Below, piece by piece: positions 18,778 to 21,083 of a DNA stretch of 64,000 nucleotides. The DNA comes from Gloeomargarita lithophora Alchichica-D10 (GTDB lineage: Bacteria; Cyanobacteriota; Cyanobacteriia; Gloeomargaritales; Gloeomargaritaceae): positions 1,049,756-1,113,755 of the forward strand of contig NZ_CP017675.1 in NCBI RefSeq assembly GCF_001870225.1, given 5' to 3'. The notes beneath the pieces were generated by a model. The model saw only the letters and a program-made list of their open reading frames with translations. It had not been told where the DNA came from and did no database searches. Numbering within the stretch: the stretch's first letter is position 1; each line of letters opens with the position of its first letter. Made by a program: the position numbers and the translations under genes.

Positions 18778-19562
18778 ATGTCAAATAGTATTGACTTAGA
18801 CCACCTAATTGCCCAATTAGTACAGCGAACGGTGCAATTACTTGAATGCTCTCAGGAAGAACTACGTCAAATTCAGTGGCAAGATGGCGAAGCAAATACG
18901 GATAGTGGCTACTCACAACTGGCTCAGGAAAAATTCCAAGAAGTTTTCAATCAATTGGCAGGAGAAAATCCTGGGATTCGGCTGGAAAAATGTGCATCGC
19001 CTGATGTTAGTTTTTCTATCAGGTCAAATTCAAGTTTATTAACGGGTAAGATATAGCTAAGTAGAGTAAGGTTGTCGTCTCAAGATTTCGGAAAACCAAT
19101 GCGGGGCGGTGCCCTGCGACCCATGTTATTATGTCAACCTTTACGTGTTTAGCTATAGAACTCAAAAGTTGTAAAGCTAATCCTATTAGACCTACGGTTA
19201 TCCCTGGTTCTACTATTGCTACATTAGACTTGAATATGTGGGTGATATTTTGTCGTCGCTCCTCGAATAATCAAAACTTTGAATTTAGATATGGTCGTTA
19301 TTTCCGTGGGATTTTTGATAGCCCCACCGTTTTATTTCAAGACCGTACTCCCCGTCCTCGTATTAATTGGGATGGTTATCAGAGCGTGAATGAAGCACCA
19401 AAACTGGAAAAAATGGATGCCTCTAGTGGCTGGGTCAAAAGATATGCCCAAGCTGCAGTAAATCGAATTTCCAGAGAACATCCGGTCAATTATTCATGGC
19501 AGGATGACCTAGTTAAGGAAATCATTAAAATTGCTAGAGAAAAGGGAATCACTGGGGAATAA
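18778..19562 (+). pseudogene. Type II restriction endonuclease gene interrupted by a 104-bp element
   Basis: Two frames are two halves of one gene. The first (18778-19053) reads MSNSIDLDHLIAQLVQRTV and ends SLLTGKI, then a stop supplied by the insertion. The second continues ELKSCKANPIRP in a shifted frame from 19158 to 19562. Deleting 19054-19157 joins them in frame as TGKI-ELKSC, giving about 227 residues. The joined sequence has a PD-(D/E)xK pattern: PDV about 20 residues before IELKS. The insertion falls between catalytic D and ExK, so no active enzyme is expected. The gene converges on a cytosine methyltransferase with 2 bp between stops, which supports the restriction-enzyme identity. 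Specificity is unknown. Confidence 0.85.
19054..19157 (+). mobile_element. 104-bp MITE-like insertion, TATAGCTAA ends
   Basis: TATAGCTAA at 19052-19060 is matched by its inverse TTAGCTATA at 19149-19157. The target looks like TA (or ATA) duplicated at both sides, as for IS630/Tc1-type transposition. The interior has the GC-rich core GGGGCGGTGCCCTGCGACCC also found in group-1 repeats of the window. It has no coding capacity. Coordinates include one copy of the target duplication. Confidence 0.8.
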
Positions 19563-19564
19563 AA

Positions 19565-20857
19565 CTAGGAAACTAATTGGATTTTTTCTGGTTCACATTT
19601 AGCAGTATCTATGAACAATTGATGCCAAATCATCTCCAATCTTTTAGCGAAGTGATAGGCAAGGAATGGGGGTACGGCGTTGCCAATTAATTTGTAACTG
19701 CTACTTGCCCCCAAACGAAAATCATCATTTGTTTCCCTGACAAACTCATAATCATCGGGAAAAGTTTGAATTCTGGCGCACTCGCGAACCGTCAATCGCC
19801 GTTCAATCCAACCTTTTGCCAACTCGTCTAAATAACGACCACCCCGTTCTCGTGATAGTCTCCTATATTCAATATTGCCGTGATGTTCAGCTCTGATTGT
19901 CGGTGCTAAGCCATCTAAATTGACTTCAATTTGTCCTTGAGTTTTGCCGCAGTATTTAGCCTTAGAATACTTGCTCTGAGCTAAATCTATTGAATTGTAT
20001 TCCGGTTCAGGTAAATCAATAAGTAGGGAGCGTAGGGTTGGATAGGGTAGCAAAAGATCATCCCATAACAGCGGTAAATTATTTTCTCTTTTATGCGTTG
20101 GTGTAGGAAAAGGATCAAAATTAGGGGGAATAATTTCTTGTTTTAGTGCCCAAATTGCCTCTGGTTTCAGATATTGACGATTAAACCCTATAAAAAAGAT
20201 GCGCTCTCGACTTTGGGGAATGCCATAATCAGGAGCAAATAAAACTTTTGCCATCACCATATAGCCTTTCTGTCCCACTGAACTAAAGTCGGCTTCAATC
20301 GTTTCTTTTGCATTTCTTAAAGACACTAAGCCTTTCACATTTTCTGCAATAAAAACCTTTGGTTCGGTAATAGAAATTACTTTTTTCATCCATTGGTATA
20401 GTTGACCACGATTTTCTTTCTTTGCATCTTCGGATAACGCCAACAATTGACCCGTATGACTTTTATGGGATTGAAAACCTTTACGTTTACCCGCCACACT
20501 AAAATCTTGACAAGGAAAACCACCGGTTACGACATCAATTTTTTCGGGAAAACTGAAACGGCCTTGTTCAAAATTCTTGACCAAATTTACAATGCTATCT
20601 AAATGAAAGGTATTAGGGTCAATCCCCCGTTTAGAAAAGTAGCCTATCCAGGCATTTTTGGCCGCCTTTACAATATCATTAGCAAATACAATTTCAAAAC
20701 TATTTCTACAGAGTAAAACTTGATCGTTTGCTAGTTCTGTATCAATCCACGCATTGTTTGAGGGATGGAGGAGAAATTTAGGTAAAGCGAATGCCCCATC
20801 AAAACCCAAATCCATGCCACCACAACCAGAAAACAGTGACAAAATCCGTTTAGACAT
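19565..20857 (-). CDS. DNA (cytosine-5-)-methyltransferase, now orphan
   Basis: A 430-residue C5 methyltransferase. Motif I is LSLFSGCGGMDLGF, the catalytic PCQ loop is TGGFPCQDFSVAGKRKGF, motif VI is FIAENVKGL, motif VIII is DYGIPQSRERIFFIGF, and the C-terminal motifs IX/X are RLTVRECARIQTFPDDY and YKLIGNAVPPFLA. All motifs are intact. It presumably protected DNA from the convergent restriction enzyme, whose gene is now split. An active methyltransferase beside a dead nuclease leaves DNA methylation without restriction. The recognition sequence cannot be read from the protein. Upstream lies a short inverted repeat that could control it. Confidence 0.95.
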   Translation of the reverse strand: MSKRILSLFSGCGGMDLGFDGAFALPKFLLHPSNNAWIDTELANDQVLLCRNSFEIVFANDIVKAAKNAWIGYFSKRGIDPNTFHLDSIVNLVKNFEQGRFSFPEKIDVVTGGFPCQDFSVAGKRKGFQSHKSHTGQLLALSEDAKKENRGQLYQWMKKVISITEPKVFIAENVKGLVSLRNAKETIEADFSSVGQKGYMVMAKVLFAPDYGIPQSRERIFFIGFNRQYLKPEAIWALKQEIIPPNFDPFPTPTHKRENNLPLLWDDLLLPYPTLRSLLIDLPEPEYNSIDLAQSKYSKAKYCGKTQGQIEVNLDGLAPTIRAEHHGNIEYRRLSRERGGRYLDELAKGWIERRLTVRECARIQTFPDDYEFVRETNDDFRLGASSSYKLIGNAVPPFLAYHFAKRLEMIWHQLFIDTAKCEPEKIQLVS

Positions 20858-20908: not shown

Positions 20909-20950
20909 TCAATATATGTAATTATATCAATCCTATTTAAGTTTTGAACA

Positions 20951-20990
20951 GCGCTCGCAGGGGCACCGTCCCCGAACTTGGTTCTTCTGA
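20951..20990 (-). repeat. Partial repeat resembling the group-1 core
   Basis: GCGCTCGCAGGGGCACCGTC followed by a TTCTTCTGA segment parallels the reverse-orientation copy at 55877-56002 (GGTCGCAGGGGGGCACC and GTTCTTCTCAGTAAT). No terminal inverted repeats are visible, so it is a decayed fragment. The rest of the 20858-21083 gap has no gene I can support; its right part (TATAGCTCTTTAGC near 21042) weakly echoes the left end of the 19054 element. Confidence 0.45.
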
Positions 20991-21083
20991 ATATCTGTAT
21001 GCCTACGGCACGCAAGCTAACGCCAATTGGGTGGGATTGCTATAGCTCTTTAGCGTATATTGGTTGTAGCGTTCTTCAAGATT

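What the first reader, a model, noticed from the sequence alone, without database searches (positions are those of the whole stretch)
18778..19562. A 104-bp mobile element splits a restriction-enzyme gene exactly between the catalytic D and ExK, leaving an orphan methyltransferase
Seen: removing 19054-19157 joins two frames without a stop (TGKI-ELKSC), the insertion has 9-bp inverted ends, and TA/ATA is duplicated. Established: PD-(D/E)xK enzymes need D and ExK; C5-methyltransferases with PCQ are protective partners. Inference: the enzyme is dead, the methyltransferase remains and can continue to methylate DNA without restriction. This captures one route by which restriction systems become orphan methyltransferases.
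Basis: partly seen in the sequence, partly recalled or inferred. Interest (0 to 1): 0.85.

Follow-up and report, generated by a model that had tools for sequence, protein, structure and literature searches.

The report
Transposon-broken restriction gene beside intact methyltransferase
In this cyanobacterium a 102-base jumping element, present in dozens of near-identical copies in the genome, has landed in the active site of a DNA-cutting restriction gene and split it while the neighbouring protective methyltransferase stayed intact: a very clean snapshot of a well-known route to orphan methyltransferases.

Summary
A 102-bp element (19054-19155) with a TA target duplication splits one reading frame (18778-19562) just before the codon for E96 of P78-D79...E96-L97-K98. 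The element belongs to a MITE family with 44 matches in this genome, 26 of them identical to this copy. Its ends match an intact IS630-family transposon in a sister species. The parent gene is real: uninterrupted homologues occur in four cyanobacteria, a Psychrobacter plasmid and a viral contig. All read straight through the junction, keep PD...ELK, and sit tail-to-tail with a homologous C5-methyltransferase, as here. The pair is therefore a type II restriction-modification module; literature predicts CGCG for the Psychrobacter relative. The methyltransferase keeps its catalytic motifs. The rest of the broken gene has no other lesion and keeps 30 of 33 residues invariant in the other homologues, so inactivation looks recent. 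Not shown: that the methyltransferase is active, which site it methylates, that the fragments cannot reassemble, or that the loss was selected. Stepwise loss starting with the endonuclease, and MITE disruption of genes in cyanobacteria, are both published. This is a well-resolved new example, not a new mechanism.

The parts
18778..19053 (+). N-terminal part of the restriction-endonuclease gene, with P78-D79; runs into TAG inside the element. Alternative start GTG 18769; AGGTGA upstream of ATG 18778.
   Evidence: Frame joins to the 3' part; homologous to the intact endonucleases of L059, L064, L066, L067, L063 and L153.
19052..19053 (.). TA target-site copy, left
   Evidence: TA on both sides of every parsed copy.
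19054..19155 (+). 102-bp MITE, IS630-derived, imperfect inverted ends TAGCTAA...AAGGTTG
   Evidence: 44 matches in the genome, 26 identical; ends match those of an intact IS630 in a sister species.
19156..19157 (.). TA target-site copy, right
19158..19562 (+). C-terminal part of the restriction-endonuclease gene, beginning with E96-L97-K98; no further lesion
19131..19562 (+). ORF starting at an ATG inside the MITE (MSTFTCLAI-ELKSC...), in frame with the C-terminal part; no Shine-Dalgarno-like sequence seen; probably not meaningful
   Evidence: ORF list and direct reading.
19565..20857 (-). C5-cytosine DNA methyltransferase, 430 aa, apparently intact: FSGCGGMDLGF, PCQ, ENV, QxRxR, GNAVPP all kept
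   Evidence: Pfam PF00145 E=3.2e-54; 68% and 55% identical to the partner methyltransferases of L059 and pP60P2; 169 of 176 residues invariant in the other five are kept.

Best explanation
A type II restriction-modification module (PD-(D/E)xK endonuclease convergent with a C5-methyltransferase) was acquired between an acyl-ACP reductase gene and a tRNA-Thr gene. Later, in the same wave that spread dozens of near-identical copies, an IS630-mobilised 102-bp MITE inserted at a TA inside the endonuclease gene. It put an in-frame TAG and 102 foreign bases between the catalytic Asp and the Glu-x-Lys, which ends restriction. The methyltransferase gene is untouched, so it has become an orphan able to go on methylating its site (predicted CGCG). 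Shown: the insertion, the element family, the homologous intact modules and the intact methyltransferase frame. Inferred: loss of activity, continued methylation and the target site.
For: Frame rejoins exactly on removal of 104 bp. 44 copies in the genome, 26 identical, all parsed copies TA-flanked. An intact IS630 (HTH_Tnp_IS630 + DDE_3) in sister species G006 has ends TATAGCTAAGCTGACAAAGGTTGACAT and TATAGCTAAGCCGTTTAAGATTGTCAT, close to the MITE's two ends. Intact endonuclease homologues (53-56%, 39-40% and about 28% identity) are each convergent with a homologous methyltransferase. P78, D79, E96, L97 and K98 are invariant in all seven sequences. The module is absent from six congeners, and in three of them the acyl-ACP reductase gene is followed directly by the same tRNA-Thr. 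The broken gene keeps 30 of 33 residues invariant elsewhere and has no second lesion.
Against: No activity data. No strain of the same species without the insertion was held. AlphaFold models of an intact homologue were too poor (pLDDT 35 and 39) to confirm the PD-(D/E)xK fold. The endonuclease matches no Pfam, NCBIfam or PADLOC family and no PDB sequence. CGCG avoidance, which might have supported the predicted site, is at least as strong in congeners lacking the module.
Confidence: 0.9

Rival explanations
1. The two fragments are both translated (the C-terminal one from the ATG that the MITE supplies at 19131) and reassemble into a split but active, or weakly active, endonuclease.
For: An in-frame ATG inside the MITE opens a 143-codon ORF; both halves are otherwise undamaged and keep conserved residues.
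Against: No Shine-Dalgarno-like sequence before that ATG. The break lies between two active-site residues that sit on adjacent core strands in known PD-(D/E)xK folds (general knowledge). No homologue is naturally split. Lack of decay is equally explained by recency.
Confidence: 0.04
2. The insertion is a reversible switch: precise excision at the TA restores the endonuclease in some cells.
For: The element is of a recently amplified family and one TA left behind would restore the frame.
Against: IS630/Tc1-type excision is generally imprecise (general knowledge). No autonomous copy with these ends was found among the three DDE_3 genes of this genome. No heterogeneity data.
Confidence: 0.04
3. 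The whole module is dead: the methyltransferase is silent or inactive as well.
For: No expression or methylation data exist here to exclude it.
Against: Full-length frame with all motifs, keeping 169 of 176 residues invariant in the other five.
Confidence: 0.1

Closest known systems
Type II R-M module of Psychrobacter plasmid pP60P2 (ORF5/ORF6; PMC3632715), whose endonuclease was reported as similar to a Moraxella catarrhalis BC1 enzyme predicted to recognise CGCG
   Same: Homologous endonuclease (30%) and methyltransferase (55%), genes convergent and adjacent, PD...ELK conserved.
   Different: Uninterrupted; plasmid-borne; longer endonuclease (299 aa).
MITE-disrupted genes, and disrupted R-M genes, of Anabaena sp. 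90 (PMC3542288)
   Same: Cyanobacterial MITEs, mostly intergenic (132 of 147), with 15 inside ORFs; the paper separately reports disrupted R-M genes.
   Different: Different MITE family (type II there); I did not read that paper's tables to see whether a MITE was the cause in an R-M gene.
IS630-family insertion sequences and cyanobacterial MITEs such as Nezha (Zhou et al. 2008, cited in PMC10969869)
   Same: Short, non-autonomous, TA duplication, ends shared with an IS630 transposon.
   Different: Sequence not compared with Nezha here.
Decay of R-M systems to orphan methyltransferases by prior loss of the endonuclease (PMC6471742 and Seshasayee et al. 2012, cited there)
   Same: Endonuclease lost first, methyltransferase kept.
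   Different: Here the inactivating event itself is visible.

Membership tests
Type II restriction-modification system | Endonuclease gene paired with a methyltransferase gene | tested here: met
   Convergent pair conserved in L059, L063, L064, L066, L067 and L153.
Type II restriction-modification system | Endonuclease cuts and methyltransferase protects the same site | not testable with these tools
   No activity data; CGCG is a published prediction for a relative.
PD-(D/E)xK nuclease | Conserved PD...(D/E)xK residues | tested here: met
   P78, D79, E96, K98 invariant in 7 sequences.
PD-(D/E)xK nuclease | PD-(D/E)xK fold | tested here: inconclusive
   AlphaFold pLDDT 35 and 39; no fold search made.
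C5-cytosine DNA methyltransferase | Family profile and catalytic PCQ, ENV, QxRxR motifs | tested here: met
   PF00145 E=3.2e-54, TIGR00675 above cut-off; motifs kept.
Orphan methyltransferase | No functional cognate endonuclease | tested here: inconclusive
   Cognate gene split through the active site; absence of activity not assayed. The genome has another R-M module (Eco47II type).
MITE of the IS630 family | Short, multi-copy, no transposase, inverted ends, TA duplication | tested here: met
MITE of the IS630 family | Ends shared with an autonomous IS630 transposon | tested here: met
   Met in sister species G006; not found at the three DDE_3 genes of this genome, where one stretch beside a matching end is withheld as N.

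The most novel reading that the evidence does not exclude
The MITE has not killed the enzyme but made a split or switchable restriction system: its own ATG starts the C-terminal half, and either reassembly of the halves or precise excision gives occasional restriction under a constantly active methyltransferase.
Probability: 0.05. Interest if true: 0.65.

Novelty: new member of a known kind. Interest (0 to 1): 0.3.

Why it matters
It catches the first step of endonuclease loss with the cause still in place, in a module whose intact relatives have the same gene order. The endonuclease family has no Pfam or NCBIfam model, so the alignment made here would help annotate it. The free methyltransferase could be tested for methylation, and the strain for transformability.

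Tried and rejected
Fold prediction of the intact homologue L059: mean pLDDT 35 (single sequence) and 39 (with the two window fragments), so no fold search was made. Sequence and profile searches against PDB for the endonuclease gave nothing significant. Phage records: none. CGCG avoidance as evidence for specificity: the window has 34 CGCG against 228 expected, and the genome elsewhere a ratio of 0.22, but congeners without the module have 0.11 and 0.07. Genomes with the module have 0.19-0.34 and four other cyanobacteria without it 0.70-0.84. So it hints at CGCG but is not specific to this module. Autonomous parent in the own genome: three DDE_3 genes lack the ends. Preference for genes: of 37 copies examined, only 5 interrupt an open frame of at least 150 codons with at least 50 on each side, this one included, so most copies are outside genes.

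Full report
Setting. The window lies in a complete 3.05-Mb genome (G000).

The insertion. The frame from ATG 18778 runs into TAG at the first codon of the insert. Taking out 104 bp gives one open frame of 226 aa (229 aa from GTG 18769) ending at 19562. The mobile unit is 102 bp with a TA duplication. Every parsed copy is flanked by TA on both sides, with otherwise unrelated flanks. The 104-bp query has 44 matches in the genome, 26 of them identical, and its end pattern occurs 108 times with none in the reversed control. Related copies of 77-84% identity are abundant in congeners G002 and G004. The palindromic RNA fold is stronger than in shuffles (z = -2.8), as expected of inverted ends. The high identity of the copies shows a recent burst.

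The element's family. In sister species G006, a two-frame IS630 transposase (HTH_Tnp_IS630, DDE_3) is bracketed by TATAGCTAAGCTGACAAAGGTTGACAT and TATAGCTAAGCCGTTTAAGATTGTCAT. The MITE ends are TATAGCTAAACACGTAAAGGTTGACAT and TATAGCTAAGTAGAGTAAGGTTGTCGT. The three DDE_3 genes of the own genome lack such ends. One unpaired matching end there adjoins a stretch withheld as N, which I did not pursue.

The interrupted gene. Neither half alone has a significant family match. The uninterrupted homologues settle what it was. A Coleofasciculaceae MAG (L059) has a 219-aa protein 55% identical, read in one frame straight through the junction (KKIELKSCK against GK-I/ELKSCK), and a convergent methyltransferase 68% identical to the one here. 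Three further cyanobacterial genomes, a Psychrobacter plasmid and an IMG/VR contig show the same pair in the same convergent order. P78-D79 and E96-L97-K98 are invariant in all seven. The insertion lies after codon 95, directly before E96. The pP60P2 pair was described as a type II R-M system whose endonuclease resembles one predicted to recognise CGCG (PMC3632715).

The partner. The methyltransferase has all catalytic motifs and keeps 169 of 176 residues that are invariant in the other five; the broken endonuclease keeps 30 of 33. Intact family members score similarly, so neither gene shows decay beyond the insertion, and the break is probably recent.

History. None of six congeners has the endonuclease or a close methyltransferase. 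In G001, G003 and G006 the acyl-ACP reductase gene is followed at once by the tRNA-Thr (TGT) gene, which lies 2.6 kb further in the window. The module was therefore probably gained in this lineage and then broken. The module genes are 39-40% G+C against 53% for the window.

How it works. Shown: the stop codon and 102 bp between D79 and E96. Inferred from knowledge of PD-(D/E)xK enzymes: no activity. A cell survives loss of the endonuclease, because the genome is still methylated and nothing cuts it, whereas loss of the methyltransferase first would expose the genome to cutting. Stepwise loss that begins with the endonuclease is established (PMC6471742). Whether the loss was selected or neutral cannot be told: of 37 copies examined only five interrupt substantial frames.

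CGCG. CGCG is the most avoided palindromic tetramer in the window (0.15 of expectation) and in five other stretches (0.22). It is 0.19-0.34 in three genomes with intact modules and 0.70-0.84 in four without, but 0.11 and 0.07 in congeners G002 and G004, which lack this module. The avoidance therefore does not prove the site and needs another cause in the congeners.

Verdict. The case is an unusually clean example of a known process.

Noticed in passing
whole window; L154-L173: CGCG is strongly avoided in this genome (0.15-0.22 of expectation), and even more in congeners G002 and G004 (0.11, 0.07) that lack the R-M module; the cause there is unexplained. GGCC is the next most avoided.
   Followed up: partly
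20923-21045: A second, unrelated dispersed repeat (about 122 bp) with 46 matches in the genome, beside the methyltransferase gene.
   Followed up: no
L153:3968-6131 (IMGVR_UViG_3300023174_004581): A viral contig carries a homologous endonuclease with a convergent C5-methyltransferase; the methyltransferase has a weak C2H2 zinc-finger match at its N terminus (E=0.002, below cut-off).
   Followed up: partly
L109:387-2430 (own genome, about 2.41 Mb): An apparently intact second R-M module, Eco47II-type endonuclease (PF09553, E=5e-89) with a C5-methyltransferase; a similar pair exists in congener G002.
   Followed up: partly
L046, L054 (own genome, 1441.9 kb and 140.8 kb): Copies of the MITE inserted into or next to each other, giving tandem arrays.
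   Followed up: no
L125 (own genome, about 615.6-617.0 kb): A stretch of about 1.4 kb withheld as N lies next to an unpaired MITE-like end.
   Followed up: no
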